From positions 1 to 64,000 of the forward strand of contig DXGM01000027.1 in NCBI GenBank assembly GCA_019113915.1: a DNA stretch of 64,000 bases, written 5' to 3'. Below the pieces are notes generated by a model that saw nothing but the letters and a program-made list of their open reading frames with translations, was not told where the DNA came from and did not search any database. The position numbers and the translations under genes were made by a program. The stretch is from Candidatus Gordonibacter avicola (GTDB taxonomy: Bacteria > Actinomycetota > Coriobacteriia > Coriobacteriales > Eggerthellaceae). Below are positions 2,788-20,928 of the stretch, one piece after another (position 1 is the stretch's first letter; the number at the start of each line of letters is the position of its first letter).

Positions 2788-5028
2788 CTACTCTATGCCG
2801 TATTCTTTGAGTTTGCGATACAGCGTGGCCTTACTAATGCCCAACAGCGTGGAAGCCTCCTTCACGTTGTTGTGGGCAATGCGCATGGCCAGACGAATGG
2901 CGGCGAGTTCCGCCTCGGCGAGCGACAAAGCACCAGTTGACGCCTCGATGGCATCCAGCACTTCCTCAGGCGTGGGTTCGAGCGCCACCGCGGGGCCACC
3001 TGCCGCGCGCCCCTCCGCGGGTACAGCTGGAGTGGACGCATCCGACGCATCGCCGCCGGCGGGCACGGAAGCTGGCGACGTAAGATCAACCTCGTCGTCC
3101 GGTTCGTCACCAGGCACGTAATCAAACGCGCGCAGAATGTAAGTAGAGAAGTCGTCTACGTCGATGACGTCGCCTTCCACGGCGTAGTACATCGAGTACA
3201 CCGCGTTTTTGATTTGGCGCACGTTGCCTAGCCACCGGTAGTTCTCAAACAGACGCTGCGCGCCGGGCGTGATATCGCGCGGCCCACCGGGCGACTTGCA
3301 GCGGCACTCGTTCAGGAAGTACTTCGCAAAGTAGAGCGCATCCCCTTGGCGCGCCCGCAGCGGCGGCAGTTCCACCGTGAGGATGGCCAGGCGATACAGC
3401 AAGTCTTCGCGGAACGTGCCCTCGCGCACCATGGTGCCTAGGTCGCGGTTCGTGGCGGCCACCACGCGGAAGTCCACCTGCTTGTATATTTTGCCACCAA
3501 GGCGCATGACGCGCTTGTTCTCCAGCACGCGCAGAAGCGTGGCTTGCAACTCCAGCGGCATGTCGCCAATCTCGTCGAGGAAGAGCGTGCCGCCGTTGGC
3601 GAGTTCAATCTTGCCCGCCTTGCCGCCCCGCTCGGCGCCGGTGAACGCGCCGCTTTCGTAGCCGAAGAGTTCGCTTTCAATGAGGCGCGGCGGAATGGCG
3701 GCACAGTTGATGGACATAAACGGCCCATCCGGGCGCGATTCGTTGTGAATGGCCTGGGCAAACAGTTCCTTGCCCGTGCCGCTTTCGCCGATGATGAGAA
3801 TGTTTTCGGCCGTGACGGCATAGCGGCGCGCCAGCGCGATGGCCTGGGCAATTTGCGGGCTTTCGCCCAGAATGTCCTTGAACGTGATGCTGGCGCGCTC
3901 GCCCACGGCCCGCGCGCTCGGCTCTTTGCCGCGCGTGCGTTCCTCCAGGCGCACCAGCACCCCTTCCAGCGCGTCGCCCTTCGTCCCCTGAATGCTGGTG
4001 CCGCGCAGCATAAACGTGCGGCCGCGAATACTCGTCTTCGCACTGGCGGTTTTCTTGGTGCCGTCGAGCAACGCACCAAAACTCTGTTGCCAATTCACGT
4101 CAAACAGCGCATCCACGGTGGTGTCCACCACGTCCACCGGCCCGCGCCCAATGATGCGCGCAGCCTCCGGGCTGATTTTCTGCACGACGCCCTGCGTGTC
4201 CACAATCATCACGGGGTCGCTGCTGGTGTCGATGGTGGTGTCCAGCATGCGCCGCATCTTGGCCGACTGCGCCGTGGTGCGCGCGTATTCCTTGCCCATA
4301 TTCTGCAAATCGGCGGACAGATGAATGAAGCTCATCTGGTATTCAATGGCTGAACATACCGAGGTAATAAGCCCCAGCGCATGCATGAGCAGCTTGTGAT
4401 AGGCTGGTGACCAGGGGTCTTCCGGTAGCGGCTGCGTCAGCAGCAGTGCGGCAATAACCACGTCGTCCTCGCCGCGGATGGGGGCGGCATCGGCCGCGAG
4501 GCAGTGCAGCGCTTCGCTGTAGTGCTCGTGGCCCACCACCTGGAACGGCTCCTTGTGCCGCATACACAGCGAGTGTGCGTTCGTGCCCATGGTGGCCTCG
4601 CTGAAGATATCGCGCTCCTTCACGAAGGGGTGCAAGTCCAGGTTACCCACGCGCAGAAGCGAGGCCCCGTTGCGCGCGACCAACTCAAAGATGTAGTCGT
4701 TCGTGATGCCAAGGTCATCCACAATGCCTATCATGGGCCGCGTAATTTCAATAAGCGGCTCGTAGATGTCGAGTATTTTGTCGAATTCCTCGGTGGTGAC
4801 GGGAGAGGACAGCACGCGATTGTGCGGATCCAGCCCAAACGCGCGGCTGCGCACCCACGAGTCGGCAATTTCGGGCCTCACGGCCGGGGAAAGATGCGGG
4901 TCGGTGCCCTCGTGCGTGAACGCGTGCCAGGCACGCTCGATGGCGGGCCCCGTCATATCGTCAGCTGCTGCGTCGGCGGCAATGAAGCCAGCTCCGCTGC
5001 GGCCATCAACCGTGTCGTCGGTATTCAA
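2788..5028 (-). CDS. sigma-54-dependent transcriptional activator (AcoR-like)
   Basis: This is a 746-residue bacterial enhancer-binding protein. The N-terminal third is a GAF-like sensory region typical of AcoR-type activators (ADSWVRSR near residue 50), followed by a PAS-like segment around residues 255-360. The AAA+ domain has Walker A GESGTGKE near residue 411, the sigma-54-contacting GAFTGA loop near 458, and a Walker B region with [10 protein letters not shown] Fis-type helix-turn-helix occupies the last 45 residues. An alanine/proline-rich linker of about 50 residues separates AAA+ from the DNA-binding domain. The start codon is TTG at 5028, preceded by a strong GGGGG Shine-Dalgarno. 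RpoN is encoded at 17100-18479, so the cognate sigma factor is present. The ligand and targets are unknown; the operon at 13050-16673 is one candidate. Confidence 0.92.
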
Positions 5029-5192: not shown

Positions 5193-5223
5193 AAAAAGCG
5201 GGGGCCGAAAGGCACCCCGCTTT
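5193..5223 (-). terminator. terminator of the six-gene operon
   Basis: On the minus strand AAAGCGGGG pairs with CCCCGCTTT (arms 5215-5223 and 5195-5203). A run of five T follows directly, 30 bases past the stop of the last gene of the operon. It is a good intrinsic terminator. Confidence 0.85.
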
Positions 5224-5252: not shown

Positions 5253-5837
5253 TTACCACACGGCCGCGCAGTCCACTCCGGTGCGCATTTGGCCCTTGCC
5301 GTTGGCGCGGCGCATGAACTTGTCAATCTCCCACTTTTCGAAGATGAGCGCACGGTTGGTGCGATAGATGTCATACGCGCCGTCCAGCTCCACGCCGCAG
5401 CAGGTATGCTTGCCGTAGATGGAGCAGAACAGATCGGCCGCCTTCTCGTTGAAGCCGTTCTCTTTGAACAGGTAAAGGTCGCAGGAGAGACCACGGCCCG
5501 TCATAGGAATGAGAATCTCGCTGCCGTCACTGCTTTGCAGGAAAATGCCGCGATCGTCGAGCAGTTTGTTGTGGAAGACCTCGTCGGCTTCGAAGCGGTC
5601 GAGCCACTTCTTCTTTTTCATCTTCGCCCACATGGCCCACACGTTGTTGTAGCGGCACGCGTCGTCGTTGTACACCAGCTCGTAGAACTCGTCACACGTG
5701 GACGCCGCCGCCAGGTGTTCGCGCAGCTCAGGCCACACATTGCCCGCCACGCCCGACATGGCCAAAAGCTCGCGGTAGTCCTTCGCCTTCGATCCCGACA
5801 CGGCCGCAATCTGCTCTTTCAATTCCTGATAGTCCAT
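5253..5837 (-). CDS. hypothetical protein, last gene of the LRR-VWA-MoxR operon
   Basis: I do not recognise this 194-residue protein. It is soluble, with no signal peptide or membrane segment. It is rich in aromatic and charged residues and has a paired-cysteine stretch (HTCCGVEL) about 40 residues from the end, plus CDLY earlier. The ATG at 5837 follows a purine-rich AAAGGGGAG site. It lies 33 bases after the methyltransferase and is followed by an intrinsic terminator, so it is the last member of a six-gene transcription unit. Nothing in the sequence allows a functional assignment beyond that association. Confidence 0.8.
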   Translation of the reverse strand: MDYQELKEQIAAVSGSKAKDYRELLAMSGVAGNVWPELREHLAAASTCDEFYELVYNDDACRYNNVWAMWAKMKKKKWLDRFEADEVFHNKLLDDRGIFLQSSDGSEILIPMTGRGLSCDLYLFKENGFNEKAADLFCSIYGKHTCCGVELDGAYDIYRTNRALIFEKWEIDKFMRRANGKGQMRTGVDCAAVW

Positions 5838-5870
5838 GTATCTCCCCTTTTTCGTTTCCTAATCGTGCCG

Positions 5871-6593
5871 CTAACGCGGCTTGCTTACCAGGGCGGTGGT
5901 GCGCGTGAAGCGTACGTTTTCGGTGGTGTCAGCCACCGGCACCGTGTAGTCGTCCACGTAGCCGGTTTCCGGCCGCACCTCAGATTCCTCGTAGTAGTCG
6001 GGCGCGAAGAAACCCGCGTCCTTCACCATGCGCTCGAACTCCGCACGACTCGGCGAGGCTTGGATGGCGTTGCCGAGCGCCCGCGCCTGCTCCACCGTGG
6101 CAACGTCGCGCTCTCCCTCGGCCACCACGCCGTCGAACAAGAACACGCCGCCGGGGCGCAACGCGCGGAAGATCTCATGCACTACGCGCTCGGGGTCGTA
6201 GTCGATGGCAATACTGCTGTTGGCAAACACCGCGTCGAACGAGCCCTCAGCGATGCCGGCCGCCGCCAAGTCCTCGGGATACGCCACAGCGTAGTCCATG
6301 TTGCAGTGAGGCAAGCCGTTTTTGCGCCACGACTCTTCCTTGAACGACTGGGCGATCTCAATCCACTCCGGCGACGGGTCCACGCCCAGCGCGAACCCCT
6401 TCGGCCCCACCGAAGCGGACAGCTTGATAACACCCTTGCCACGCCGACAATCAATATCCAGCACGCGCTTGCCGGTAAGGTCGCCCAGAAGCGTCATTTT
6501 GCACTGGCTCGCAAACCCGTACTCCGAGGGCCGCGCCTCGTAGAAGGCCTTCAACACCTCGTGATCGGGCGCTGCCATCGCGTTGTCGGTCAT
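5871..6593 (-). CDS. class I SAM-dependent methyltransferase
   Basis: The protein is about 240 residues with a Rossmann-type methyltransferase fold. Motif I appears as VLDIDCRRGKG, where the usual form is DxGCGxG, and the acidic residue ending strand 2 is in GVDPSPEW. Later motifs are visible as FDAVFANSS and RALRPGGVFLFDG. The second ATG at 6593 is preferred because AAGGGG lies 8 bases upstream; an in-frame ATG at 6611 is the alternative. It sits 38 bases after the trigger-factor-like gene in the same operon. The substrate cannot be predicted. The altered motif I (Asp and Arg replacing Gly/Gly) may change cofactor affinity. Confidence 0.85.
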   Translation of the reverse strand: MTDNAMAAPDHEVLKAFYEARPSEYGFASQCKMTLLGDLTGKRVLDIDCRRGKGVIKLSASVGPKGFALGVDPSPEWIEIAQSFKEESWRKNGLPHCNMDYAVAYPEDLAAAGIAEGSFDAVFANSSIAIDYDPERVVHEIFRALRPGGVFLFDGVVAEGERDVATVEQARALGNAIQASPSRAEFERMVKDAGFFAPDYYEESEVRPETGYVDDYTVPVADTTENVRFTRTTALVSKPR

Positions 6594-6631
6594 CGAAACC
6601 ACCCCTTGCACGCCGCCTCTTCGCTACTTGT

Positions 6632-7471
6632 CTACTTGTACGACACGCGCGAGCTGTTCACCAGCCACGACAGCGCCGCCTCGCGACGCGCGAATACGCG
6701 TGCTTCATCGGCCAGGCCCTGCTCCTGCAGCTGTGCGAGAATCTTCTCGCGCTGCTCGGCGTCCTCGCCGGGCATCTGCGCCATCACGTCCTCATCGGAA
6801 AGCTCGATGGCCAGATGGTCGGCCAGCGCGTCGATGGCGCACATCGCGCGCAGGGCGTCGGTGGGCATACCCTCCATGCGGTCGGCCTCGTCGGGCTCTT
6901 CCACCAGGCGCTCAGCCAGCTTCTCCAACACGAGGTCGGGGAACTGCGGATCGTTTTTCTGCATGTCCTTCAAGCCGAACTGACTGGCCACACCCTCGCG
7001 GAACTCCGCCACGGTGTTCGCGGGCTGGAAGTGCTCTTTCACCAGTTCATCGGTGAGTTCAGGCTGCACGCAGTAGAGGATTTTCTCAACGGTCACCGTC
7101 ATGGTGAGCGCCGAGGCGTCGCCGTCTTTGGCCAGCGGCAGCTTGATCTTTGCCACCACGTCCTTGGTGGTTCCAGCCTCCATGCCCATGAGTTCGTCGT
7201 CAAACGAACGCGGCATCTCGCCGCCACCGGTGTGATACAGCGAGTGCTGCAGGATGAAGTTCTTCGCCGGGTTGCCGTCGATGCAGGCGTTTTCCGTGGT
7301 CACAACCAGGAAGTCACCCATGATGGCGCCGCGGTCTTCCTCAATTTCGTGATACTCAGCCAAAGGCTCCAACAGCTTTTCAATTTGCGCGTCAACCAAG
7401 CTGTCGGGAACTTGCGGTTTCGGCAGCTCCATGCTGACGGGCTCATAGCTGGTGAGCGTGTACTTTCCCAT
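6632..7471 (-). CDS. trigger-factor-like peptidyl-prolyl isomerase/chaperone
   Basis: This 279-residue protein resembles the middle and C-terminal parts of trigger factor. An FKBP-type segment (EEDRGAIMGDFLVV to TVTVEKILY) is followed by a helical domain starting PELTDELVKEHF. The N-terminal ribosome-docking domain of true trigger factor is missing, so it probably does not act at the ribosomal exit site. The start at 7471 (MGKYTLTSYEP) has GAGAGGA upstream; the extra frame to 7594 looks non-coding. It lies downstream of the MoxR ATPase in a co-directional operon, which suggests it folds or holds a client of that system. The role is inferred from domain and context. Confidence 0.8.
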   Translation of the reverse strand: MGKYTLTSYEPVSMELPKPQVPDSLVDAQIEKLLEPLAEYHEIEEDRGAIMGDFLVVTTENACIDGNPAKNFILQHSLYHTGGGEMPRSFDDELMGMEAGTTKDVVAKIKLPLAKDGDASALTMTVTVEKILYCVQPELTDELVKEHFQPANTVAEFREGVASQFGLKDMQKNDPQFPDLVLEKLAERLVEEPDEADRMEGMPTDALRAMCAIDALADHLAIELSDEDVMAQMPGEDAEQREKILAQLQEQGLADEARVFARREAALSWLVNSSRVSYK

Positions 7472-7574
7472 AGTGGTGAATCCTCTCTTCATGCCTTCGA
7501 TAACTACTTCTACTAGTGCTCGCCCCCACGGGGGCGGTTGTGCCGTTGTGCGCGCATGGCGCGACGAGCTGCGC

Positions 7575-9077
7575 CTACAGGCCCAACTCTTCAATACGGT
7601 GGCGCAAATCGCGCTGCCGCTCCGACAAAATCATGTCCTCATTGTGCGCGAAGTAGGACGGGCTTCCGTATTGGGCCAGGTAGCGCGCCGTTACCGTGCG
7701 CGACGTGAGTTCGGTCGTGAACACCAGCAGCTCCTGCTGGTCGCCGAACGCCGCTTCCACAAACTCAAACGCGCGAGCCAGGCGTTCTTCCACCTTCGCC
7801 GCGTCGTCCTTCAGGCCCTGGGCCTTGTTCGCAAACTCCTTCTCCACGCGTGCAAATGCTTCCCCCGTATCACCCGTGTCCGCAAGCAGAATAAGCTCAT
7901 CCAACGCGTGCAACTCGCGCTCGGCATTCAGGCGCTTCGCCTTCGACAACACGCCCGTGGCAAGCGACATTTCCAGCTTCGATTCCTTGCGCAGGCGCAC
8001 TGCGCGCAGTTCCTCCACCGTGTCCTGCCCCTGCTCCTGAACGGCCACCTTCACGGCGCGCAAATCGTCGCGCACGACCACCAGCACATCGGTGGCGTCC
8101 ATGATGGTTTGCACGTCGCCGCTGATGGCGTCCAGCAACAGCCCCACCAGCGACAATCGCTCGTCGAACTCCGCCGCCTGCGCGCGCTCGACCACGTCTT
8201 CAATAGCGCCGCCTTCCAGGATTTCGTCCACCCGGTAGTCCTCGCGGTACTTGTTGAACAGATCGTAGTACGCGGAAAACTCGCGCGCGATGGGTTCGCT
8301 TTGCACGTACTGCACAATCAGGTCGTAGTCGACGGGCTTATTCAGCTTCTCGAACACCGTAATCATATCAGAAAGGTCGTCCCAGCCACGCGCCGTGACG
8401 AACGCCTTGCCCTCAAGCGACGCCTCCACCGAATAGAACCGATTCTTCTTGATATCGAGGAACGTGAGAATAGCCGGGTGCGTGTCCTTCGAAAGGGCGT
8501 AGGCCTTCCATGCCTCGTAGTCGGGCTCCACGACGATTTTCTTCACGCGGTCAAGCGTGACAATGTCGAACTCGTGCACGCTCTTGTTGTACTCGGGCGG
8601 ATTGCCTGCGCACGCGATGATCCAGCCGTCGGGCACCTTGTGGCGGCCGAACGTTTTGAACTGGAGGAATTGCAGCATGGAGGGGTACAGCGTCTCCGAT
8701 ACGCAGTTGATCTCGTCCAAGAACAGAATGCCGCGCTCCACGCCCGTGGTCTTCATATAGGTGTACACCGACGCGATGATTTCGCTCATGGTGTACTCAG
8801 ACGCCTCGTATTCGAAGTCGCCGTAAGATTCCTTCTCGATGAAAGGCAGGCCGAGCGCGCTTTGACGCGTGTGGTGCGTCATGGAGTAGGACACCAGGCC
8901 AATGCCCAGCTCAGAAGCAATCTGGGCCATGATAGCCGTCTTACCAATGCCGGGCGCGCCCACCAAAAACACCGGGCGCTGCCGCGAGGTGTCCAGCAGG
9001 GGCAGCCCGTGATCGTCGGTGGCCAGGTAGGCCTCGATGGTGTCTTTCACCTGCTGTTTTGCTCGTGCGATATGCAT
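7575..9077 (-). CDS. MoxR-family AAA+ ATPase
   Basis: A 500-residue protein with an N-terminal AAA+ module: Walker A GAPGIGKT near residue 40, Walker B GILFLDEIN, and a sensor-1 asparagine in CAGNPPEYN. The C-terminal half is a long charged helical extension that looks coiled-coil (repeated E/K/R/L around residues 330-440). MoxR ATPases work with von Willebrand A proteins as chaperones in metal insertion or complex assembly, and a VWA protein is encoded immediately upstream, 60 bases away. The start ATG at 9077 has AGAGGAG upstream. The extension is longer than in a minimal MoxR of about 330 residues. Confidence 0.88.
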   Translation of the reverse strand: MHIARAKQQVKDTIEAYLATDDHGLPLLDTSRQRPVFLVGAPGIGKTAIMAQIASELGIGLVSYSMTHHTRQSALGLPFIEKESYGDFEYEASEYTMSEIIASVYTYMKTTGVERGILFLDEINCVSETLYPSMLQFLQFKTFGRHKVPDGWIIACAGNPPEYNKSVHEFDIVTLDRVKKIVVEPDYEAWKAYALSKDTHPAILTFLDIKKNRFYSVEASLEGKAFVTARGWDDLSDMITVFEKLNKPVDYDLIVQYVQSEPIAREFSAYYDLFNKYREDYRVDEILEGGAIEDVVERAQAAEFDERLSLVGLLLDAISGDVQTIMDATDVLVVVRDDLRAVKVAVQEQGQDTVEELRAVRLRKESKLEMSLATGVLSKAKRLNAERELHALDELILLADTGDTGEAFARVEKEFANKAQGLKDDAAKVEERLARAFEFVEAAFGDQQELLVFTTELTSRTVTARYLAQYGSPSYFAHNEDMILSERQRDLRHRIEELGL

Positions 9078-9137
9078 GGTTCGCTCCTCTTTGCGTTGCT
9101 CGAAACCGCTTTAAACGCGTATGCGCCAAGCGGCCGC

Positions 9138-10814
9138 CTATCCCAAGTCCCTCTCGTCCAACAGCACCTTCAACGCCCACGGGGGCACCACGGGGTCGGA
9201 ATATCCATCATCCAGAAACACAAACACCGCGTCGTAGGCGGGTTGCTTGCGCGGGAAGGTACCCTGCCCATCCGTGAAGTACACCAGCCCCTTCAAGTCG
9301 GTGAACTCGCGTTTTTCCACCAGCAGGTTCACGTAGTCGAACACCGGGCGGAAGTCCGTGCCGCCGAAACCCTTCAGCTCCATGGTTTTCAGGTACTCGT
9401 CCAGCTGGTCAAGCGAGGTGATTTTCGTGTCCTCTTGCACGCGTGCGTCGCACTGCACAATGTGGATGTTCACACGGTCGTTGAAACTTTCCACGTGCTT
9501 CAAGATGTTGTACGTCTTGCGCATGAACGCCTGCACCAAGTCGCCCGACACCGACTCCGAGGTATCAATGGCAATAACGAAGTCACGCACCGAGCGGTCT
9601 TCCTTATATTCCAAGGGCTCGATGAGCGGCATGTTGCCGTAGCGATCGAGGCCAAACGTGTAGTAGATGTAGTCGAACTCGTCGGCGTTTACGCGCATGC
9701 GCTCGTGCAGCGTGGCGAAGCGGCGCAGGAACTCCGTGTAGTCGTAGCGCTCGCGGTTGATGGCTTGCAGCGCGGCCACCATGTTGCCGGCTTGGTCGCC
9801 CTGGCGCGCCATCTGGGATTCCAGCTCTATCTGGATGCGACGGCTGATGTCTTCCCAGGCGTCCGACAACTCCTTTTCCGTTTGCTCGGAGGCGCTGTCG
9901 GTGGTGGGGGTGTCGTCGGTATCGGTGTCGCTACCGTCGTCGCGCGTTTCGTCTTCGGCGCGCTGTTGTTCGTCATCTTCGTGCTGCTGCGTTTCGTCGC
10001 CTTCGCCGCCGTCGGTCGAGGGCATCTCGGACATGCCGCGCGTGTCATCAAGCGACTCAGAGCCTTCCGTGTTCGGCATCTGGCCGCCCTCGCGGTCCTC
10101 GGTTTGCTGACGCGCCGCGCCGGTGGCACCGCGCTGGGCATCGCCGTCTGCCTCGCTGTACCACATGCCGTGCGAGTCGTGATAGAACAGCGGCGCCAAC
10201 GAGCGCAAATCCACCTTGTTGCCCTCGTTCGAGAAGAAGCGATACAACCGCTCGGCCGTTATCACGCCACCCACCTGCGCCTTCAACAGCTTCAGCGACT
10301 CGCGCGCACGCCGGTCCATGTTCGAGGGGAAGGCCTCCCCCACTAAATCGAGCAGCAACGCCTCAATGGCGATGTCACACGACACGTCCCACGGCTGGCG
10401 CAGCACCGAGTACAACATAAACGGATGGCGGAAGATGCAGTGGAACAGGCAGTGCACCACGTCGCGCACCACTTCATTCGGCGACAGCTTGAAGCGCGCC
10501 ACCACAAATTCTGGGTCGTAATAGAACTTCACACCATCGCTGGCCAGGCCATACACGTCAAAGCTGGGCACAAGCGGCATGCGCCACAGCGCCCGATCAA
10601 GAAAGCGGAAGCGCACGGCCAGCGCCGAGCGCGCCTCTTCCAAAATGTCATTGGCAATGGGAACGCACAGCTCGTAGCGCGCACGGCGCTCGGCGAGTTT
10701 TTCCTCGCTCAGCACGCTCACGCGCTCCGAAGGCTTCGGCTTGGAGAGCATGCCCAAGCGCTCGCGCTCTTTCAGCGCCACATCGCCTTCCAATATGGGC
10801 GTTAAATCTTTCAA
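9138..10814 (-). CDS. VWA-like domain protein with degenerate metallopeptidase-like N-terminus
   Basis: A 558-residue two-part protein. The N-terminal region resembles the DUF2201-type metallopeptidase-like domain, but the expected HExxH reads HCLFH, so zinc proteolysis is doubtful. A strongly acidic, low-complexity linker (D/E/T/Q rich, about residues 225-310) follows. The C-terminal VWA-like domain keeps the MIDAS motif DTSES, the later threonine in GGTD, and FTDG. It is paired with the MoxR ATPase downstream, the classic MoxR-VWA arrangement. The start is ATG at 10814 after a purine-rich GAAAAGGGGG. It probably acts as the metal-dependent adaptor of the ATPase. Confidence 0.87.
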   Translation of the reverse strand: MKDLTPILEGDVALKERERLGMLSKPKPSERVSVLSEEKLAERRARYELCVPIANDILEEARSALAVRFRFLDRALWRMPLVPSFDVYGLASDGVKFYYDPEFVVARFKLSPNEVVRDVVHCLFHCIFRHPFMLYSVLRQPWDVSCDIAIEALLLDLVGEAFPSNMDRRARESLKLLKAQVGGVITAERLYRFFSNEGNKVDLRSLAPLFYHDSHGMWYSEADGDAQRGATGAARQQTEDREGGQMPNTEGSESLDDTRGMSEMPSTDGGEGDETQQHEDDEQQRAEDETRDDGSDTDTDDTPTTDSASEQTEKELSDAWEDISRRIQIELESQMARQGDQAGNMVAALQAINRERYDYTEFLRRFATLHERMRVNADEFDYIYYTFGLDRYGNMPLIEPLEYKEDRSVRDFVIAIDTSESVSGDLVQAFMRKTYNILKHVESFNDRVNIHIVQCDARVQEDTKITSLDQLDEYLKTMELKGFGGTDFRPVFDYVNLLVEKREFTDLKGLVYFTDGQGTFPRKQPAYDAVFVFLDDGYSDPVVPPWALKVLLDERDLG

Positions 10815-10827
10815 AACCGCCCCCTTT

Positions 10828-12876
10828 TCATAAGCTGAAATCTATTCCCGTGTCGGGCACCCAGCGGTGCTTCAGTTCCAACAAACACCCGGTGGCCTGG
10901 GCTCTTCCCTCACGCACGGCCACGGCAAGCTCCGCTTCCACCGTTTGCTCGTCAAGCAGGCCGCGTTCGCACAATTCTTCCAGCGCCGCAAGGTTGGCAT
11001 GCTCGGCAAAGTAGCGACATACCTGGGCGCTGCGGCGTGCGAAAATACCTTCGTACAGCTCGCGCGTTTCATCCGGCAGGCTCATAGGATGCTGCAGCCG
11101 GTAGAGTGCGGCAGGCGCGAACTCGTTCACGTCGACCGCATGGGTCACCCACGAGTCGTAGTATTCGAAGTCGAACACCGTGCCCTTCGCGTTCGTGGTA
11201 ATAAGGTAGGAAGGCGAGCGGTAGCGCGCCGAGAGGCTGGGCACCTGGAAGTCGCCCGACTCGTAGCCATCAATGGGTTCCGGGAAGCGCACGTGCATCC
11301 ATGGAATGGTGCGCGCGGTGGAAAAGGCACCCATACACACGCTTTGCAGATGGTCGTGAATATAGAGTTCGTCCACGCCACTCGTACCGCAAAACGCCAG
11401 GTTAGCCACCTTTGTTACCTGGTCAGGGATGTGCACAATGTGGTCGGGTCCCACGTACAGAAGGCACGTGTCGCCGCCCGCCTTGTTGCCCTCGCGCTCA
11501 CACAAAAGCCCATTTTCCAGGTAGAACAGCGGGTTGCCCTCGGCCACTTCCACCGAAGAAAGCGGTGTGTTGTGTGTGAGCTGGTTCTGCCCCTGCACCA
11601 GAAGTGCGTCCTCGCCAATCTCGCGCACGCGTTCTGACAACGTGAGCGTAATGAGCGCCGTGTCCAAAAACGCGCGCTCACCAATGCGTTCAAGCGAATG
11701 CGGCAAATCCACGCGCATGAGCTGGCGGCACCCGCGAAACGCTTCGGCCCGCACTTCGAACAGCCCCTCGGGCAACTCCACCGCGCGCACCGTGCGATGG
11801 CGCTTGAACGCCTCGGCACCCACGGCGTGAGTACCCGGACGCACGGCATAGGCCGGAGCGAGGCCGATATACTCAGCAAACACGTCATGGCAATAGAGGC
11901 CACCTTGCGCGTCTAAGTCCATGTGCGGGTTCGCGGAGTCAACCGCAATCGCACCTTCATCCACGCTTCGCTGAGCAGGCGTTTTATCGAACGCACGAAA
12001 ACCCAATTGTTCCACCGAGGCAGGCACCCTCACGCGCTGTATGCCGGACAGCGCAAAGGCCTCTTCGCCGATACTCTTCAAACCGAAGGACAGCGAAACA
12101 CTTGTCAGCTTGGCGCAGTGGTAAAACGCCATGGCATCAATGTGCTCCACCGCCGGGGGAATACGCACAGAACCAAGCGCCGTCTTCGCAAACGCCAGCC
12201 GCCCGATGCTTTTGAGAGAATCGGGCAAGGACACCTCGCGCAAACACGCAACCGAATCGAACGCCCTATCTTCAATAACCTGGCATCCCTCGGCCACCGT
12301 GAACTGTTCACAGGCCACCACCAGGCGATACAGCGCGCTCCCATCCTTGGAGTACAGCGCAAGCCCGTCGGTGCTAAAGCGCTCATTATCCTCATCAACC
12401 GAGATTTCGCGAATCTTGAGAAGTGGCAGCGGCTTGGCCTCAAGCTCGCGCACCAGCGGGCCAAACCGCACACGCGTAATGGGAGAATCGCAAAACGAAT
12501 CGTTTTCCAGCTTCACCGTGGGAGCCGTCAGCACCACTTCGGCAAGCTCTCGGCACCCGGCAAACATCGTGCGATCGATAGCCTCAAGCGAAGCCGAAAG
12601 CCGAGCATAGTGCAGATTGCGACACCCATCAAACACGTGGTGCCCCACGAACTCCACCGTATCGGGAAGTTCCACCCGCTCAAGTTCGGTGTGGTTACGG
12701 AACAAGTTCGAAGCAAGGGAGGTGACCGGCACCTCTTCAATGTGCGAGGGAATGGACACGCACGCATCCGACCCCTCATATCCCACAAGACGGATGGTTC
12801 CAGCAGCACGGCAGCGGAAACGGAAGGCACCGAAGTGGCGCTCCTCTACCTCCTGCTGTCTGCTGTCATCATGCAA
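10828..12876 (-). CDS. BspA-type leucine-rich-repeat protein
   Basis: About 680 residues made largely of BspA/LRR_5-like repeats of the type VELPDTVEFVGHHVFDGC, in which a strand and turn are followed by an aromatic-plus-cysteine step. Repeats cover roughly residues 40-550; the last 130 residues are non-repetitive and acidic. There is no signal peptide, so unlike many BspA proteins it should be cytoplasmic. I set the start at a TTG (12876) because GAGAGGGG lies 5 bases upstream. The open frame runs back to an ATG at 12993, but that stretch consists of two inverted repeats and has no ribosome site. First gene of the six-gene operon, 13 bases before the VWA gene. Probably a protein-binding scaffold. 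Confidence 0.8.
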   Translation of the reverse strand: MHDDSRQQEVEERHFGAFRFRCRAAGTIRLVGYEGSDACVSIPSHIEEVPVTSLASNLFRNHTELERVELPDTVEFVGHHVFDGCRNLHYARLSASLEAIDRTMFAGCRELAEVVLTAPTVKLENDSFCDSPITRVRFGPLVRELEAKPLPLLKIREISVDEDNERFSTDGLALYSKDGSALYRLVVACEQFTVAEGCQVIEDRAFDSVACLREVSLPDSLKSIGRLAFAKTALGSVRIPPAVEHIDAMAFYHCAKLTSVSLSFGLKSIGEEAFALSGIQRVRVPASVEQLGFRAFDKTPAQRSVDEGAIAVDSANPHMDLDAQGGLYCHDVFAEYIGLAPAYAVRPGTHAVGAEAFKRHRTVRAVELPEGLFEVRAEAFRGCRQLMRVDLPHSLERIGERAFLDTALITLTLSERVREIGEDALLVQGQNQLTHNTPLSSVEVAEGNPLFYLENGLLCEREGNKAGGDTCLLYVGPDHIVHIPDQVTKVANLAFCGTSGVDELYIHDHLQSVCMGAFSTARTIPWMHVRFPEPIDGYESGDFQVPSLSARYRSPSYLITTNAKGTVFDFEYYDSWVTHAVDVNEFAPAALYRLQHPMSLPDETRELYEGIFARRSAQVCRYFAEHANLAALEELCERGLLDEQTVEAELAVAVREGRAQATGCLLELKHRWVPDTGIDFSL

Positions 12877-13049: not shown

Positions 13050-13382
13050 TTAGAGTGGGCTGCCGCAGTTTTTGCAATGCGTGCGGGTACCCAGCATGTA
13101 GCTGCCGCATTCGGGGCACACTTTCGTACGTCCCAACTCGACGCATTCGTTGCAAAGCGGCCTCTCGAAGGGCGAGCAGAAGAAACAGGCTTTCTTCACC
13201 TCGTTGTTCAGGTGAGTAACCGCCTTCGAATCGTCATGCTCAATGGTCGCGCCGCATTTTTTGCACACGTCCCGCTCGTACGGGTTATACCATCCGCACT
13301 GTGGACAGGGGACGGGGAATTTCATCTCCGCCTTTTTGTGGCAGCGGTTGCACCACGGGCTGCATGTTCGACAATTCGGCAT
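13050..13382 (-). CDS. multi-zinc-ribbon protein
   Basis: A 110-residue, cysteine-rich protein with at least four zinc-ribbon half-sites: CRTC, CNRC, CPQC/CKKC, CFFC/CNEC and CPEC/CKNC. It has no membrane segment. The ATG at 13382 has only a distant AAGG; ATG 13325 (MKFPVPCPQC) has a better site but would lose the first CxxC pair, so the longer form is kept. It is the last gene of the sigma-54 operon. Zinc ribbons of this type bind protein or nucleic acid. A role in maturation, scaffolding or regulation of the molybdopterin enzyme encoded upstream is inference from position. Confidence 0.8.
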   Translation of the reverse strand: MPNCRTCSPWCNRCHKKAEMKFPVPCPQCGWYNPYERDVCKKCGATIEHDDSKAVTHLNNEVKKACFFCSPFERPLCNECVELGRTKVCPECGSYMLGTRTHCKNCGSPL

Positions 13383-13434
13383 TTGCTTCGCTACGCCTTC
13401 TTACCTGAATCGCGTTCGGAGAATGACGCTCTCG

Positions 13435-13698
13435 TTAGTTCTTCGGGGCGCCGGGAGCCTTCGGGGCAGCAGGAGCCTTGGGGGCGCCGGGAGCCTTGGG
13501 GGCGTCATCGAGACCCTGGGGGGTCAACGAGATTTCGGACGGAGCAGGAGCAGTAGCAGCGATAGCATCCTCTGCAGCCTTGCGAGAAGCAGTCAGGTCG
13601 GTACCGCACTTCTTGCACGTTTCATCCGTGGGCTTGTTAAAGGTACCGCACTCGAGGCACTTAACAATGGTAACGGTAGCCGCCGGTCTGAAGCACAT
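13435..13698 (-). CDS. small zinc-ribbon protein with Ala/Pro-rich tail
   Basis: An 87-residue protein. The N-terminal half has a zinc-ribbon-like pair, CLEC..CKKC, spaced 15 residues apart. The C-terminal third is a repeat of APKAPGAPKAP type that is probably disordered. The start ATG at 13698 has an excellent AAGGAG 6 bases upstream. It lies between the ferredoxin gene and a second zinc-ribbon gene, all co-directional with the molybdopterin enzyme. I do not recognise a named family; the tail may be a flexible tether. Confidence 0.78.
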   Translation of the reverse strand: MCFRPAATVTIVKCLECGTFNKPTDETCKKCGTDLTASRKAAEDAIAATAPAPSEISLTPQGLDDAPKAPGAPKAPAAPKAPGAPKN

Positions 13699-13772: not shown

Positions 13773-14117
13773 TTACTGCTCGGGCACGTACACCCAGGAG
13801 CGCGGCATTTCCTTGGCCTTCGCAGCCAGCTCGTCAACCGTGCCATACTTCATGCACGCGGCCTGGCAGTGATGCACGCAGGTAGGCAGCTTGCCCATAG
13901 CCGTGCGGTCGGCGCAGAGGTCGCAGAGCGACGTCATGACCGGCAGGTAGGTGTACTCGAACTTACCATTGGGGAACATGCGGGGGCCGTCAGCGAACAG
14001 CATAACGCCGTTGGCCTCGCCAGCCTGCCAACCATGCTCGACCTTGCAGGCCATTTCGCAGGAGTGGCAGCCGGTGCACCACTGGTAATCAATCAGAATA
14101 CCGTACTTTTCAGCCAT
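13773..14117 (-). CDS. two-cluster ferredoxin-like electron-transfer subunit
   Basis: A 114-residue FeS protein. One cluster site is CTGCHSCEMAC (C-x2-C-x2-C-x3-C) near residue 15; the second combines CDLC and CVHHC. It is shorter than the four-cluster DmsB-type subunits elsewhere in this window (207-210 residues). The ATG begins one base after the stop of the molybdopterin subunit and uses a GGAGG site inside its last codons, indicating translational coupling. There is no signal peptide, in keeping with a cytoplasmic partner. Its role is to pass electrons to or from the catalytic subunit. Confidence 0.88.
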   Translation of the reverse strand: MAEKYGILIDYQWCTGCHSCEMACKVEHGWQAGEANGVMLFADGPRMFPNGKFEYTYLPVMTSLCDLCADRTAMGKLPTCVHHCQAACMKYGTVDELAAKAKEMPRSWVYVPEQ

Positions 14118-14118: not shown

Positions 14119-16458
14119 TTAGAATCCTCCCTCGCGAGTCACGATCTCGCTGGGCGAGCAGTCGTTCTCCTTCGTGACCGGATAAATCTTGCAGATCTGG
14201 TTTGCGTACGGAGCGCCGTACAGCGTAGGACCGGTAACACCCTGGACCGTGAGGTTGTTGATGTTGGAGTCGAACACGCCGAACAGGTTGGGCTCTGCAC
14301 CCTCCTGCTCCGGGAACCACCAGCCGTGCTCAGAACGCACGGTGTCAAGCTTGAGCGAGGCGTTGAAGCGCACGCGCTGCTTGCACTTGCCGCGCATGTT
14401 CTCAACCCAGATCCAGTCGCCCTCGGTCACACCAATCTTGGCAGCCGTCTCGGGATGCAGATCGGTCAGCGGGTCGGGATGCGACTCACGCAGACGCGGA
14501 ACCATGCGCTCCTCAGAGTGGAAGTACTCCCACGTACGGGCGCCGGTGGTCAGAACGTACGGATACTCCTCGAACAGCTCAGGCGTGGAGATCGGGGACT
14601 CTGGCGGCTCCTCGTAGTACGGCAGCGGATCGAAGCCCCACGCGTCAAACAGCGTGTTGAACAGCTCGCACTTGCCGGTGTTCGTGTTGAAGCCGGGCTG
14701 ACCGTCGTCACGCAGCCAACCGAGCTCGTACTTGCGATAGGCCCAGTCATCCGGCCAGTCGATGACCTTCTCGGTGAGGTCAAGGAACGTCTGATCGGTC
14801 TTGTGCGGCCAACCAGCATGGAAGCGGTTACCGGACTGAATCCACCAGGTCATCAGCTCGACGTCCGTCTCCCACGGGAACAGCCTGGGATTGAGCTTCT
14901 TGCCAATCTCAAGGATGATCTGCTCGTCGGACTTGGCCTCGTAGTAGTCGCCAACCTTCACGATGGAGCGCAGCGGCCACCACCACACACGAGCGGAGTT
15001 ACGCTCGCAGCTCATGCCGCAGGGCAGCACGATGTCGGCGCACGCAACAGCCGTCGGGGTCATGAACACGTCGACCACCACGTTGTAGTCAACCGAACGC
15101 ATGGCGCGGTACACGCGCGGAGCCTCGGAGGACATGTTCGCGAAGGTGTTCGTGGACTGGATGAACAGCATGCGAATGGGATACGGCTCGCCCGTCTCGA
15201 TGGCGTTGAGGACGGTGTCGCCGTTGGCCGTCGGGTCGAAGCCGAGAGCGTGCAGCGGAGAGGTCTCCACGCCGAGCATCTTGCCGAGCATCTCGTCAGA
15301 GAGGTTCCACATGCCGCAGCCATAGGAGTCAGGAATGTCGTAAGCGCAACGCGGGATCATCATGCCGCCGGGCACGTCGATGTCGCCGCAGATGGCGCCG
15401 AGGGAGAGCAGAGCCTGGGCCAGCGGAATGCCGCAGACGGTCTGGTCAACCTTGAGGCCCCACTGAATCGTGGAGGGGTTGCCGGAAGCATAGAGGCGAG
15501 CAGCCTTGCGGATGTCCTCAGCGTCAACGCCAGCGATCTCAGCGGCACGCTCGGGCGGGTACTCGCGGCAGCGCTCGGCCAGCTCTTCGAAGCCGTAGCA
15601 CCAGTTCTCAACGAAGTCATGATCGTACAGATCCTCTTCGATGACAACGTTCAGCATAGCGATAACAACAGCAGCGTCGGTACCAGGACGCACCGGCAGC
15701 CACACCTCAGCCTTAGAGGCCAACCACGTGCAGGACGGGTCGAGGACGAGCAGCTTGGTGCCGCCTTCCTTCATGACGTCGACGATCCAGTGACCGAAGA
15801 AGCCGTCGCCGTTGGAGATGAGGGCGTTGTTGCCGACGTTCAGGATGTAGTCGGGGAACACGTACTCGGGGTCAGCGTAGCGCTTCTCGAGGTGCTGCGA
15901 GCAGTCAGCCACGAAGAAGTCGCCCATGAAGCAGTGACCGATGGTCGTACGGGGCAGGTAGCACGCGTCGCCGGAGAGGAAGCCGAGCACGAAGTTCGGG
16001 CTGCCGAACGCGGCATAGCTCAGGTACGGGGTCTGCCAGCAGATGTTACGGCCGGTGCCCTGCATGGACACGATGGACTCGGGGCCGTAGTCTTCCCAGA
16101 TAGCACGCACATGCTCGGCGATGTCGTCGATAGCCTCATCCCACGTGATGCGCTCCCACTTGTTCTCGCCGCGCTCGCCTACGCGCTTCAGGGGGTACTT
16201 CAAACGATCCTTGTGATAGAACGTCTCGACAACGTCGAGGCAACGCATGCACAGACGACCCTGGTTGTAGGGGGACAGCGGGTCGCCCTCAATCTTCTCA
16301 ACCTTGTTGTCCTTGGTGTAATAGAGAACGGAGCAACCGTTGTGGCAACCAGGAGCGGTCCACATGTTGGTGCGGGTAACCGTGTACTCGCCCTCCTGCC
16401 ACTGCCAGTCGGTTTTATAGACGTCTTTGTTGACGCCCTCAAGCTCGTTGGTAAGCAT
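14119..16458 (-). CDS. cytoplasmic molybdopterin oxidoreductase, catalytic subunit
   Basis: A 779-residue member of the DMSO-reductase family. The N-terminus has no Tat signal. Cysteines at CHNGC and at CMRC, about 30 residues on, form an incomplete or variant 4Fe-4S site: the third cysteine of the usual C-x3-C-x3-C set is a leucine. Pterin-binding signatures include GERGENKWERITWDEA and the C-terminal GDWIWVEN/APYANQ region. Absence of Tat plus a small ferredoxin partner recalls the acetylene-hydratase/pyrogallol-transhydroxylase/catechol-dehydroxylase branch; that placement is a guess. The gene is behind a -24/-12 promoter and a 55-residue gene, and followed by the ferredoxin and two zinc-ribbon genes. 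The substrate is unknown. Confidence 0.88.
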   Translation of the reverse strand: MLTNELEGVNKDVYKTDWQWQEGEYTVTRTNMWTAPGCHNGCSVLYYTKDNKVEKIEGDPLSPYNQGRLCMRCLDVVETFYHKDRLKYPLKRVGERGENKWERITWDEAIDDIAEHVRAIWEDYGPESIVSMQGTGRNICWQTPYLSYAAFGSPNFVLGFLSGDACYLPRTTIGHCFMGDFFVADCSQHLEKRYADPEYVFPDYILNVGNNALISNGDGFFGHWIVDVMKEGGTKLLVLDPSCTWLASKAEVWLPVRPGTDAAVVIAMLNVVIEEDLYDHDFVENWCYGFEELAERCREYPPERAAEIAGVDAEDIRKAARLYASGNPSTIQWGLKVDQTVCGIPLAQALLSLGAICGDIDVPGGMMIPRCAYDIPDSYGCGMWNLSDEMLGKMLGVETSPLHALGFDPTANGDTVLNAIETGEPYPIRMLFIQSTNTFANMSSEAPRVYRAMRSVDYNVVVDVFMTPTAVACADIVLPCGMSCERNSARVWWWPLRSIVKVGDYYEAKSDEQIILEIGKKLNPRLFPWETDVELMTWWIQSGNRFHAGWPHKTDQTFLDLTEKVIDWPDDWAYRKYELGWLRDDGQPGFNTNTGKCELFNTLFDAWGFDPLPYYEEPPESPISTPELFEEYPYVLTTGARTWEYFHSEERMVPRLRESHPDPLTDLHPETAAKIGVTEGDWIWVENMRGKCKQRVRFNASLKLDTVRSEHGWWFPEQEGAEPNLFGVFDSNINNLTVQGVTGPTLYGAPYANQICKIYPVTKENDCSPSEIVTREGGF

Positions 16459-16780: not shown

Positions 16781-16796
16781 TGCATGTACTGTGCCA
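16781..16796 (-). promoter_or_regulatory. sigma-54 (-24/-12) promoter
   Basis: On the minus strand this reads TGGCACAGTACATGCA. The invariant GG and GC are present with 10 bases between them, and TGGCAC is a perfect -24 core. Transcription would begin near 16770, leading into the 55-residue gene and the molybdopterin operon. RpoN is encoded just upstream. Confidence 0.8.
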
Positions 16797-16946
16797 GTTT
16801 TGCCAAAAATATCGAAAAAAGTTTTGTATTCCCTGGTCAATATACCTAACAAGAATTGGGAGAAGAATTTGGAGCACCGATAGCCCGTGGTACGAAATTG
16901 AAAAAGAGACGTTGAATTCTCGTTTTTGAACTGTTTCTTGGCTGAA

Positions 16947-17099: not shown

Positions 17100-18479
17100 C
17101 TAGCCGCGACGGCGGGCGGCGCGGGCGGGAATGCCCAACTCTCCGCGATACTTATTAACCGTGCGGCGCGACAGCACGATGCCGGTAGCCGCGAGCGCGT
17201 CCACGATGGCTTGGTCGCTCAGCGGGTGCGCGGAATCTTCGGCAGCCACGAGTTCACTTATCTTGTGGCGCACGCTGGTGGAGGACACCGCCGCCTCCGA
17301 CGCATTGCTGGCAGCGGAGCTAAAGAAGAAGCGCAGTTCGAAAGTGCCCACCGGCGTCTGGATGTAGTTGCCGTTCACCAGGCGACTGACGGTGGACTCA
17401 GAGACACCGGTTGCTTGCGCCACCTGGGCCATGGTAAGCGGGCGAAGGTAATCGTAGCCTTTGGCGAAGAAGTCAACCTGCATGTCGGCGATGCAACACG
17501 CTACCTTATATAAGGTAGTCTTGCGATACGTGATGTTGCTCATGAGGGTTTCGGCCTCTTTGAGCTTTTCCTTCAAATAGGTTTGCGTGCCGGGCTCCTT
17601 CACGCTGGACGCGAGCGTGCGGTACTGTTCGTTGATGCGCAAATGCGGCAGGTAGAAATCCTGGAGGTGCACGCGGAAGCCACCTTCTTCTGCCTGTTCT
17701 ATCACCACTTCAGGCCACACGGGTTCAGAGGGGCTACCGAACTGGCCAGCCGGTCGCGGGTTGCAGGCGCGCACGACATCGAGCGCTTCGCTGAGTTCAC
17801 GCAGCGTGATACCCATGTCATGAGCAATAGCTGCGGGCGTACGCGATTCAAATTCGGTGATATGTTCGATGAGCTGCTTCACCAACGGCGTCATGCGACC
17901 GGCAGCTTCCAGCTGGAGCGTGAGGCACTCGGATAAGTTGCGGGCGCCAATTCCCGGAGGGTCAAACTTCTGAATAATGCCAAGGATGTCTAGCACCTCA
18001 TCGACGCTGGCACCCACGGCCTCGGCCACCGACTCCACGGGTGTGCGCAGATAGCCGCTTGAATCGATGTTACCAATAAGGTATTCGCCCACCGCTTGGG
18101 AGCGCTTATCGCTCACCTGCATGTGCAGCTGTTCCAGCAGATATTCTTCCAGCGAAGCATCGTCCACGAGAAAGCGGTCGAACGAGAAGCTGCGCTGCGA
18201 CATGCTGGAGCGCTCGTTGTCGAAGTTTTCCGGACTGCCGTGACCGCGCCTATCCAGCAGCGCATCAGCGCTTTCGGCCCGCTTGAAGCGGTCGACCTCA
18301 TAGGGATGCAGGGGCTCAACCCAGTCATCATCGAAGAAGGGATTTTCCTCAACGCACGTCTTCACGTACTCGCTCAAGTCCGACGCGTTCATTTGCAGCA
18401 CGGAGATACCCTGCTTAATCTCCGTGGTCAAGTGCAAACCGTGATGCTGAGAAAGACCAGGTGCGTGGCCTATTTCCAT
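17100..18479 (-). CDS. rpoN: RNA polymerase sigma-54 factor
   Basis: A 459-residue sigma-54. The glutamine/leucine-rich activator-interacting region I is at the N-terminus (QGISVLQMNASDL). The core-binding domain follows (GYLRTPVESVAEAVG, FDPPGIGARNLSECL). The C-terminal helix-turn-helix includes TMAQVAQATGVSESTVSRL, and the RpoN box reads SRRTVNKYR. The start at 18479 has AGGGGGA upstream. Sigma-54 is uncommon in Actinobacteria outside the Coriobacteriia. The gene lies just upstream of a -24/-12 promoter, and a GAFTGA-type activator is encoded at 2788-5028, so the whole regulatory circuit may be local. Confidence 0.97.
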   Translation of the reverse strand: MEIGHAPGLSQHHGLHLTTEIKQGISVLQMNASDLSEYVKTCVEENPFFDDDWVEPLHPYEVDRFKRAESADALLDRRGHGSPENFDNERSSMSQRSFSFDRFLVDDASLEEYLLEQLHMQVSDKRSQAVGEYLIGNIDSSGYLRTPVESVAEAVGASVDEVLDILGIIQKFDPPGIGARNLSECLTLQLEAAGRMTPLVKQLIEHITEFESRTPAAIAHDMGITLRELSEALDVVRACNPRPAGQFGSPSEPVWPEVVIEQAEEGGFRVHLQDFYLPHLRINEQYRTLASSVKEPGTQTYLKEKLKEAETLMSNITYRKTTLYKVACCIADMQVDFFAKGYDYLRPLTMAQVAQATGVSESTVSRLVNGNYIQTPVGTFELRFFFSSAASNASEAAVSSTSVRHKISELVAAEDSAHPLSDQAIVDALAATGIVLSRRTVNKYRGELGIPARAARRRG

Positions 18480-18789
18480 TTCAGTCCCCCTGTCGACACG
18501 GTTGGGCCTGACACTCCCTTGCCACGCTGTACCGTTGGGTCATGATTATAGCCACTCGCAGGAAGGGCGCAAGCAGAGGGCGCACTCCTTCTGCGTAAAT
18601 TCGCAACCCGTCCGTCTGGCCGCTTTCGGCCGCGGTGCTTCAACGTTTGGAGAAGTCGCGAGGGATTCGTTACCGAACGGTGACGGAATGCACCTGCGGT
18701 GGCGGGAGCGCCAAGGCGGGAGTGGCGGGTCGGTATAATCGAAGAGAGATAGGCACGAGAAGCACACCCCGATAAGCGAGGTAGAAAGC
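18480..18789. promoter_or_regulatory. divergent promoter region between rpoN and the PGPGW protein
   Basis: This 310-base stretch has no gene. A TATAAT hexamer at 18734-18739 sits about 50 bases before the plus-strand ATG at 18790 and is a plausible -10; no good -35 is visible. The minus-strand side should hold the rpoN promoter, which I could not pick out. Confidence 0.5.
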
Positions 18790-20926: not shown

Positions 20927-20928
20927 AC

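What the first reader, a model, noticed from the sequence alone, without database searches (positions are those of the whole stretch)
5253..12876. Six-gene operon: LRR protein, VWA, MoxR ATPase, trigger-factor-like protein, methyltransferase, unknown
All six genes are co-directional with gaps of 13-103 bases and end in a strong terminator. MoxR-VWA pairs are known chaperone machines, but the addition of a cytoplasmic BspA-type repeat scaffold, a trigger-factor-like protein lacking its ribosome-binding domain, and a methyltransferase with an altered motif I makes an unfamiliar set. It could be a protein-assembly or protein-modification system, or a conflict system.
Basis: partly seen in the sequence, partly recalled or inferred. 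Interest (0 to 1): 0.7.

Follow-up and report, generated by a model that had tools for sequence, protein, structure and literature searches.

The report
ATPase–VWA–LRR assembly operon near molybdoenzyme
The six genes are a real, conserved set built around a three-part ATP-driven protein machine; in this gut-bacterial family it sits beside a molybdenum/tungsten enzyme, which it most likely helps to assemble, although that role is inferred and untested.

Summary
In detail: six minus-strand genes (12876-5253), gaps 13-103 nt, then a terminator. The set is not a chance run. Its core, a third protein + VWA + AAA+ ATPase, recurs in Eggerthellaceae and Clostridia. The third protein is defined by an unnamed ~114-residue helical domain at the C-terminus of the window's LRR protein. 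In 119 Eggerthellaceae genomes, 95 of 104 hits to it lie within 6 kb of the VWA gene. Elsewhere the LRR part is exchanged for DUF6273 or a degenerate LRR. The VWA protein has an intact MIDAS and an N-terminal HxxxHxxxxH…D site, invariant in 102 homologues but without the catalytic glutamate of a peptidase. The ATPase motifs are intact. In a related paralogous cluster the methyltransferase is fused to it. Both cluster types usually sit directly downstream of a cytoplasmic MopB enzyme (nearest solved relative acetylene hydratase) and its Fe-S partner; here the neighbourhood also holds a sigma-54 site, rpoN, a sigma-54 activator and a Mo/W transporter. Best reading: an ATP-driven maturation machine for such enzymes, working like NorQD or CoxDE, with the LRR protein as client adaptor. 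The link to the enzyme is strong but not obligatory; the mechanism is inferred. A conflict system is less likely, not excluded.

The parts
10828..12876 (-). LRR (BspA-type, LRR_5) protein, 682 aa, no signal peptide seen; third component of the machine
   Evidence: PF13306 E 1.6e-55; adjacent to VWA-AAA in A- and B-type loci
10834..11175 (-). CTD: ~114-aa helical, possibly ankyrin-like C-terminal domain that defines the third component
   Evidence: Profile A3; 95 of 104 hits in 119 genomes lie within 6 kb of a VWA gene; no Pfam family
9138..10814 (-). VWA protein: DUF2201_N zincin-like domain + linker + C-terminal VWA domain
   Evidence: PF13203 E 9e-15, PF09967 E 4e-13; VWA fold Z about 14 over residues ~405-558
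10374..10454 (-). H121-x3-H125-x4-H130...D147 site of the N-domain: invariant, no catalytic Glu
   Evidence: H, H, H and D are 100% in 102 homologues; position 122 is mostly M/L/C/T, E is not among its common residues
9174..9578 (-). VWA domain with intact MIDAS (D417-T-S-x-S421, T486, D515)
   Evidence: Invariant in 102 homologues
7575..9077 (-). MoxR-like AAA+ ATPase, 500 aa; Walker A GAPGIGKT at 8937-8960
   Evidence: Walker A (K46, T47), Walker B (D121, E122), N159, R177 and R230 invariant in 93 homologues
6632..7471 (-). Trigger-factor-like protein without the ribosome-binding domain (PPIase + part of the C-domain)
   Evidence: TIGR00115 E 6e-26, model 101-287; follows AAA in 12 of 12 A-type loci
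5871..6593 (-). Class I methyltransferase with signature motif I CRRGKGV; fused to the ATPase in B-type clusters
   Evidence: PF13847 E 3.5e-13; motif and fusions
5253..5837 (-). Unknown 194-aa protein: helical N-half, beta-sheet C-half; only in A-type clusters
   Evidence: Model mean pLDDT 84, no PDB match with E <= 0.001; 9 homologues aligned
5201..5218 (-). Intrinsic terminator of the operon
   Evidence: GGGGTGCCTTTCGGCCCC CGCTTTTTGT
14119..16458 (-). MOB: cytoplasmic MopB Mo/W-bisPGD oxidoreductase, 779 aa; proposed client
   Evidence: Closest solved protein acetylene hydratase 2e7z, E 4e-99; 84-95% identical orthologues
13773..14117 (-). Small Fe-S (ferredoxin-like) partner of MOB; 1 nt after it
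   Evidence: DmsB-type partial match E 3e-12; adjacent to MOB in A-type loci
13050..13698 (-). Two small zinc-ribbon-like proteins (13435-13698 and 13050-13382)
   Evidence: Zinc-ribbon matches below cut-off for 13050-13382; conserved order MOB-FeS-ZR2-ZR1
16781..16797 (-). Sigma-54-type site CTGGCACAGTACATGCA upstream of a 55-aa ORF (16506-16673) and MOB
   Evidence: Same place in five other loci (L031, L032, L033, L112, L113) in otherwise diverged DNA; such a pattern is not above chance in the window as a whole
2788..5028 (-). Sigma-54 activator (PrdR/PrpR-like) directly downstream; in relatives divergent from LRR
   Evidence: PF00158 E 3e-65; NCBIfam PrdR E 1e-105, below its cut-off
17100..18497 (-). 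RpoN (sigma-54)
   Evidence: TIGR02395 397 bits, cut-off 277
19195..22904 (-). Mo/W uptake genes: ModC/WtpC-like 19195-19905, ModA/ModB-like in between (read by eye), ModD 22062-22904
   Evidence: WtpC E 2.5e-77 (below its cut-off); ModD 207.8 bits, cut-off 178.9

Best explanation
A dedicated ATP-driven maturation machine for cytoplasmic Mo/W-bisPGD (MopB) enzymes. The AAA+ protein forms a ring. The VWA protein docks on it and uses its MIDAS and its peptidase-like but Glu-less metal site to hold the client and/or a metal. The LRR protein is the client adaptor, bound to the machine through its C-terminal helical domain. The trigger-factor-like protein holds the newly made enzyme away from the ribosome. 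The methyltransferase either modifies client or machine or is a non-catalytic sensor of S-adenosylmethionine. ATP hydrolysis opens the enzyme so that cofactor (Mo/W-bisPGD or Fe-S) can enter, as proposed for NorQD. Shown: the gene set, domain identities, motif conservation, three-component association and recurrent linkage to MopB genes. Inferred: complex formation, client identity, direction of action and each protein's role.
For: MOB-FeS lies directly upstream in all 11 A-type loci with upstream sequence and in 12 B-type loci (some cut by a contig end); C-type and Clostridial copies lack this arrangement. In the ATPase tree A and B (with a few MOB-less loci) form one supported clade, 100/100, while MOB_A and MOB_B are only ~39% identical and each has closer relatives (52-59%) that are not beside a VWA gene. 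MOB_A and the A cassette co-occur in 11 genomes; MOB_A occurs without it in 2, one of them 56% complete with a TFL-AAA remnant; Fisher p 7e-14, not corrected for kinship. In G105 MOB, LRR, VWA and the front of AAA are gone together, leaving an AAA remnant-TFL-MTF-UNK. Trigger-factor-like paralogues lie near listed MOB genes 13 times versus 2.3 expected; B clusters also carry an FKBP and a Trigger_C protein. AAA::MTF fusion. Invariant metal-type site lacking Glu. Mo/W uptake genes, rpoN, a sigma-54 activator and a positionally conserved sigma-54 site nearby. Published: NorQD drives metal insertion (PMC13036017); CoxD is involved in the CuSMo centre of CO dehydrogenase (PMC3471820); catechol dehydroxylases, closest to acetylene hydratase, need dedicated accessory genes and were inactive in E. 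coli (PMC11887054, PMC7028382).
Against: Clostridial LRR-VWA-AAA copies and the Eggerthellaceae C-type have no such MopB neighbour, so the machine's general client is something else. MOB_B occurs without an adjacent cassette in about a third of its genomes, though all but G007 seem to hold another A/B-type cassette or remnant. MOB_A occurs without any cassette in G055, 83% complete. The genome holds about 60 MopB genes (67 Pfam matches), so neighbours are easy to come by. In most A-type loci the two gene blocks are separated by a regulator or transporter genes. There is no structure, interaction or expression evidence.
Confidence: 0.5

Rival explanations
1. A general ATP-driven remodelling machine whose clients vary by lineage and are unknown; the MopB neighbour is a by-stander kept by synteny and common sigma-54 control.
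For: The AAA-VWA-CTD trio is far wider than the MopB link: Clostridia and the C-type near recN have no such MOB. The third component's sensor part is exchanged (LRR, DUF6273, degenerate LRR). MOB_B is often cassette-free.
Against: The same order MOB-FeS-two small genes-LRR-VWA-AAA is kept in two deeply diverged clusters with different MopB enzymes. Trigger-factor-like paralogues are enriched at MopB genes.
Confidence: 0.28
2. A conflict (defence) system: the LRR or DUF6273 part recognises an invader molecule, AAA-VWA transmits the signal, and the methyltransferase or another part acts.
For: MoxR-vWA ternary conflict systems are known (PMC7159879); the third component here has exchangeable recognition-type domains, some in 2-3 tandem copies.
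Against: PADLOC gave only generic ATPase and methyltransferase matches. The VWA protein ends with its VWA domain, with no effector fused. The bpMoxR match is below cut-off. Synteny is stable across genera, C-type copies are kept beside recN across the family, LRR proteins in the A group are moderately conserved (44-63%), not hypervariable, and the context is metabolic.
Confidence: 0.12
3. Two unrelated units placed together: an AAA-VWA-LRR machine, plus TFL-MTF-UNK that belong to another process.
For: MTF and UNK are missing from three A-type loci (L036-L038); UNK is the least conserved gene (40-56%).
Against: AAA::MTF fusion in B-type clusters, MTF next to AAA also in two C-related loci, TFL after AAA in 12 of 12 A-type loci.
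Confidence: 0.1

Closest known systems
NorQ-NorD (MoxR AAA+/VWA pair for FeB insertion into nitric oxide reductase; PMC9976466, PMC13036017)
   Same: Adjacent AAA+ and VWA genes; VWA at the C-terminus with MIDAS and a different N-domain joined by a disordered linker; client gene nearby; metal/cofactor insertion
   Different: N-domain here is DUF2201_N-type with an invariant His/His/His/Asp site; extra LRR/CTD, trigger-factor-like and methyltransferase components; client class differs
CoxD-CoxE of CO dehydrogenase (PMC3471820)
   Same: AAA+ protein (with VWA partner, from general knowledge) in the gene cluster of a molybdenum enzyme and involved in building its metal centre
   Different: CO dehydrogenase is of the xanthine-oxidase class, not MopB; no LRR or trigger-factor-like part; CoxE sequence not compared here
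RavA-ViaA (PMC3893208, PMC9489729)
   Same: MoxR ATPase + VWA protein linked to respiratory enzymes and anaerobic physiology
   Different: No LRR third component, no methyltransferase, no MopB cluster (general knowledge)
MoxR-vWA ternary conflict systems (VMAP, iSTAND, FtsH, beta-propeller; PMC7159879)
   Same: AAA-VWA plus a third component with a conserved core and exchangeable domains
   Different: None of the published third components; CTD-LRR/DUF6273 instead; no effector fused to VWA; metabolic context
Accessory genes of catechol dehydroxylases (DadhD-H in Eggerthella lenta; PMC11887054)
   Same: Dedicated accessory genes next to a MopB enzyme of the acetylene-hydratase-related group in the same bacterial family
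   Different: Those are a helicase, a hypothetical protein, a TorD-like chaperone and ferredoxins; no AAA-VWA-LRR is described in the passages read

Membership tests
MoxR AAA+/VWA chaperone pair | AAA+ protein with intact Walker A, Walker B, sensor and arginine-finger residues | tested here: met
   Invariant in 93 homologues
MoxR AAA+/VWA chaperone pair | ATPase recognised as MoxR by sequence model | tested here: inconclusive
   AAA_5 above cut-off, bpMoxR below cut-off; PF07726 no match in the genome; nearest solved chain midasin, E 1e-5
MoxR AAA+/VWA chaperone pair | Adjacent gene with VWA domain and intact MIDAS | tested here: met
MoxR AAA+/VWA chaperone pair | Ring formation, VWA finger in the pore, ATP-dependent action on a client | not testable with these tools
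   Needs biochemistry or a complex model
MoxR-vWA ternary conflict systems (Kaur et al. 2020) | Third component VMAP, iSTAND, FtsH or beta-propeller protein | tested here: not met
   Third component is LRR_5 + unnamed CTD
MoxR-vWA ternary conflict systems (Kaur et al. [quoted passage not shown]
   VWA domain ends at residue 547 of 558
Trigger factor | N-terminal ribosome-binding domain | tested here: not met
   Match starts at model position 101 of 410 while the protein begins about there
Trigger factor | PPIase (FKBP-like) domain homologous to trigger factor | tested here: met
   tig E 6e-26; 1t11 aligned over residues 6-146, weak, E 0.009
DUF2201_N metallopeptidase | HExxH catalytic motif | tested here: not met
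   HxxxH kept; position of Glu is C here and mostly M/L/C/T in 102 homologues
Acetylene hydratase (for MOB) | Nearest solved relative within the MopB superfamily | tested here: met
   2e7z E 4e-99 over residues 50-724
Acetylene hydratase (for MOB) | N-terminal Fe-S cysteines and active-site Asp of the characterised enzyme | tested here: inconclusive
   The alignment does not cover the motif; by eye the N-terminus reads APGCHNGCSV, one cysteine short of CxxCxxxC
Known defence systems (PADLOC) | Match to system-specific models | tested here: not met
   Only generic AAA/methyltransferase domain matches

The most novel reading that the evidence does not exclude
A new class of three-component AAA-VWA machine, marked by the CTD and exchangeable LRR or DUF6273 recognition parts, of which the Eggerthellaceae form is the missing maturation factor for soluble acetylene-hydratase/catechol-dehydroxylase-like Mo/W enzymes, with a ribosome-free trigger factor and an ATPase-linked methyltransferase as working parts.
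Probability: 0.35. Interest if true: 0.8.

Novelty: new variant of a known kind. Interest (0 to 1): 0.6.

Why it matters
Gut Eggerthellaceae carry dozens of MopB enzymes, some of which transform drugs and plant polyphenols, and several could not be produced actively in E. coli because accessory factors are needed (PMC11887054). A dedicated ATP-driven maturation machine would be a direct candidate, testable in the Gordonibacter expression host that already exists. More generally, the CTD-marked third component gives a handle on a widespread, apparently undescribed AAA-VWA system of gut Clostridia and Coriobacteriia.

Tried and rejected
PF07726 (AAA_3) search of the own genome: no match, so it could not be used to define the ATPase. 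Rfam over 1-32000: only a tRNA, no Moco or other riboswitch. PDB fold search with the unknown protein: nothing with E <= 0.001. PDB second look with the VWA model: only the VWA domain was matched; NorD, ViaA and CbbO were not among the rows shown, and the N-domain was barely tested. Profile of the VWA family against PDB sequences: only a spurious match in the acidic linker. Literature searches for acetylene hydratase + trigger factor, and for MoxR + LRR + von Willebrand + operon, found no description of this set. First gene calling by longest ORF failed in this high-GC DNA (antisense ORFs) and was replaced by a codon-usage caller. A first sigma-54 scan had an indexing error and gave nothing (second part); corrected. 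Similarity to MADS/IetA defence proteins was rejected as generic domain similarity. Phage families phrog_1297 and phrog_1314 match the ATPase and the VWA protein, so the pair also occurs in phages; not pursued.
Full report
What is there. Six minus-strand genes run from 12876 to 5253 with gaps of 13, 60, 103, 38 and 33 nt and a terminator at 5218-5201. They encode a BspA-type LRR protein, a DUF2201_N/VWA protein, an AAA+ ATPase, a trigger-factor-like protein that starts at the PPIase domain, a class I methyltransferase and a protein without any family. The genome shares its genus with Gordonibacter sp. Marseille-P2775 and 28C (contig lengths identify G041 with L031 and G095 with L032).

The core is a conserved three-component machine. 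From 80 genome contigs fetched by VWA homology and further genome stretches, neighbourhoods were called with a codon-usage gene finder and compared. VWA and AAA are nearly always neighbours, in Coriobacteriia and in Clostridia. The third member was not obvious from domain names alone. A profile built from the last part of the LRR protein found the same domain (CTD) within four genes of VWA in 89 of 101 loci. It is joined to LRR_5 in most, to DUF6273 in an Oscillospiraceae group (CTD first, two or three tandem genes), and to a degenerate LRR between VWA and AAA in Oscillibacter. As a check, a CTD profile was run over 119 whole Eggerthellaceae genomes: 95 of 104 hits lie within 6 kb of a VWA gene, and the nine others lie on contigs without a VWA hit (eight of those nine genomes have a VWA elsewhere). 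At genome level CTD and VWA agree in 72 genomes, with one CTD-only and five VWA-only. The CTD has no Pfam family; weak ankyrin-like similarity only.

Motifs. In 102 VWA proteins the MIDAS residues are invariant. So are H121, H125, H130 and D147 of the N-domain, but the position of the glutamate that would make it a peptidase holds mostly M, L, C or T. In 93 ATPases the Walker A lysine, Walker B Asp-Glu, Asn159, Arg177 and Arg230 are invariant. The methyltransferase motif I is [CS]RRG[KR]GV-like throughout the aligned members, so the 'alteration' is a family trait. The MoxR label itself is architectural: AAA_5 matches above cut-off, bpMoxR below, AAA_3 not at all.

Two cluster types with MopB enzymes. 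A-type (the window): MOB-FeS-ZR2-ZR1-[regulator or transporter genes in relatives]-LRR-VWA-AAA-TFL, with MTF-UNK in 8 of 11 informative loci. B-type (a paralogous cluster, in this genome on contig C47): MOB-FeS-two other small genes-LRR-VWA-AAA::MTF fusion, often with a full-length trigger factor paralogue, an FKBP and a Trigger_C protein close by. In an ATPase tree A and B, with a few MOB-less loci, form a fully supported clade apart from C-type and Clostridial copies. MOB_A and MOB_B are only about 39% identical and each has nearer MopB relatives that are not beside a VWA gene, so either two enzymes were recruited to related machines or an old link was kept while the enzymes diverged.

Strength of the link. 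MOB_A orthologues (84-95% identical, next best 59%) and the A cassette coincide in 11 genomes. MOB_A is cassette-free in G055, and in G100 (56% complete), where a TFL-AAA remnant is on another contig. The Fisher p of 7e-14 counted G069 as MOB-positive because a partial MOB at a contig edge was seen; it is not corrected for kinship. G105 has lost MOB, LRR, VWA and most of AAA at this place while TFL, MTF and UNK remain. For B, about 22 of 32 genomes with MOB_B have VWA within about 10 kb, by hand comparison of the lists; most others hold an A-type or displaced B-type cassette, G007 does not. The genome has about 60 MopB genes (67 Pfam matches), one per ~48 kb, so a chance same-strand neighbour within 3.5 kb would be expected for roughly 4% of loci (own estimate). 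Trigger-factor-like paralogues lie within 6.5 kb of a listed MOB gene 13 times against 2.3 expected.

Regulation and supply. Upstream in the window are rpoN, ModD, a ModC/WtpC-like ATPase and, read by eye, ModA/ModB-like genes. A sigma-54-type site precedes the 55-aa ORF and MOB at the same place in the window and in L031, L032, L033, L112 and L113, in otherwise diverged DNA; L035 has a perfect site 83 nt before LRR. Within the window alone such a pattern is not above chance, so only the positional conservation counts. A sigma-54 activator flanks the operon here and is divergent from LRR in several relatives.

The enzyme. MOB's closest solved relative is acetylene hydratase (E 4e-99). No export signal is seen and it has a small Fe-S partner, like the soluble Gordonibacter-type catechol dehydroxylases, which are themselves closest to acetylene hydratase (PMC7028382). 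Its substrate is unknown; by eye its N-terminal Fe-S motif lacks one cysteine and MOB_B lacks them all.

Mechanism. NorQD, CoxD and RavA-ViaA show that AAA-VWA pairs act on metalloenzymes (PMC13036017, PMC9976466, PMC3471820, PMC3893208). The simplest reading is that this machine does so for MopB enzymes, with the LRR-CTD protein as adaptor, the ribosome-free trigger factor as holdase and the metal-type N-domain of VWA at the point of action. Every mechanistic step beyond gene association and motif conservation is inference. The general machine in Clostridia must have other clients. A conflict function is possible in principle because the third component has exchangeable recognition domains, but no effector or defence signature was found.

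Unknown gene. The 194-aa product was modelled with nine sequences (pLDDT 84, helical N-half, beta C-half) and had no significant PDB match. It is A-type only and probably peripheral.

Noticed in passing
window 12878-12960, minus strand: A near-perfect 22-bp inverted repeat right before the Shine-Dalgarno of the LRR gene; folds at -43 kcal/mol (z -4.9), single copy in this genome, not seen upstream of LRR in relatives.
   Followed up: partly
window 13731-13758: 12-bp palindromic hairpin between the Fe-S gene and the zinc-ribbon genes, terminator-like on the plus strand.
   Followed up: no
G000 whole genome: About 60 MopB genes in 3.1 Mb (67 Pfam matches), some apparently broken or split (e.g. 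C16:155010-156321).
   Followed up: no
L069, L075, L077, L079, L081, L103: Two or three tandem genes of CTD + DUF6273 directly upstream of VWA-AAA in Oscillospiraceae; whether DUF6273 is a recognition part or diversified was not tested.
   Followed up: partly
L132 (G105): Remnant cluster: truncated AAA beside intact-looking TFL, MTF and UNK, with MOB, LRR and VWA gone.
   Followed up: partly
L033:12276-15931: TFL and MTF pieces lie on both sides of an inserted 408-aa ORF in Raoultibacter timonensis; insertion or misassembly.
   Followed up: no
phrog_1297 / phrog_1314: Phage protein families match the ATPase (E 3e-40) and the VWA protein over nearly its whole length (E 1e-35), so phages carry this pair too.
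   Followed up: no
C-type loci, e.g. L120, L121, L126: A further VWA-AAA pair with a divergent CTD-LRR gene is kept beside a recN-like gene in many Eggerthellaceae, without a MopB neighbour in this arrangement.
   Followed up: partly
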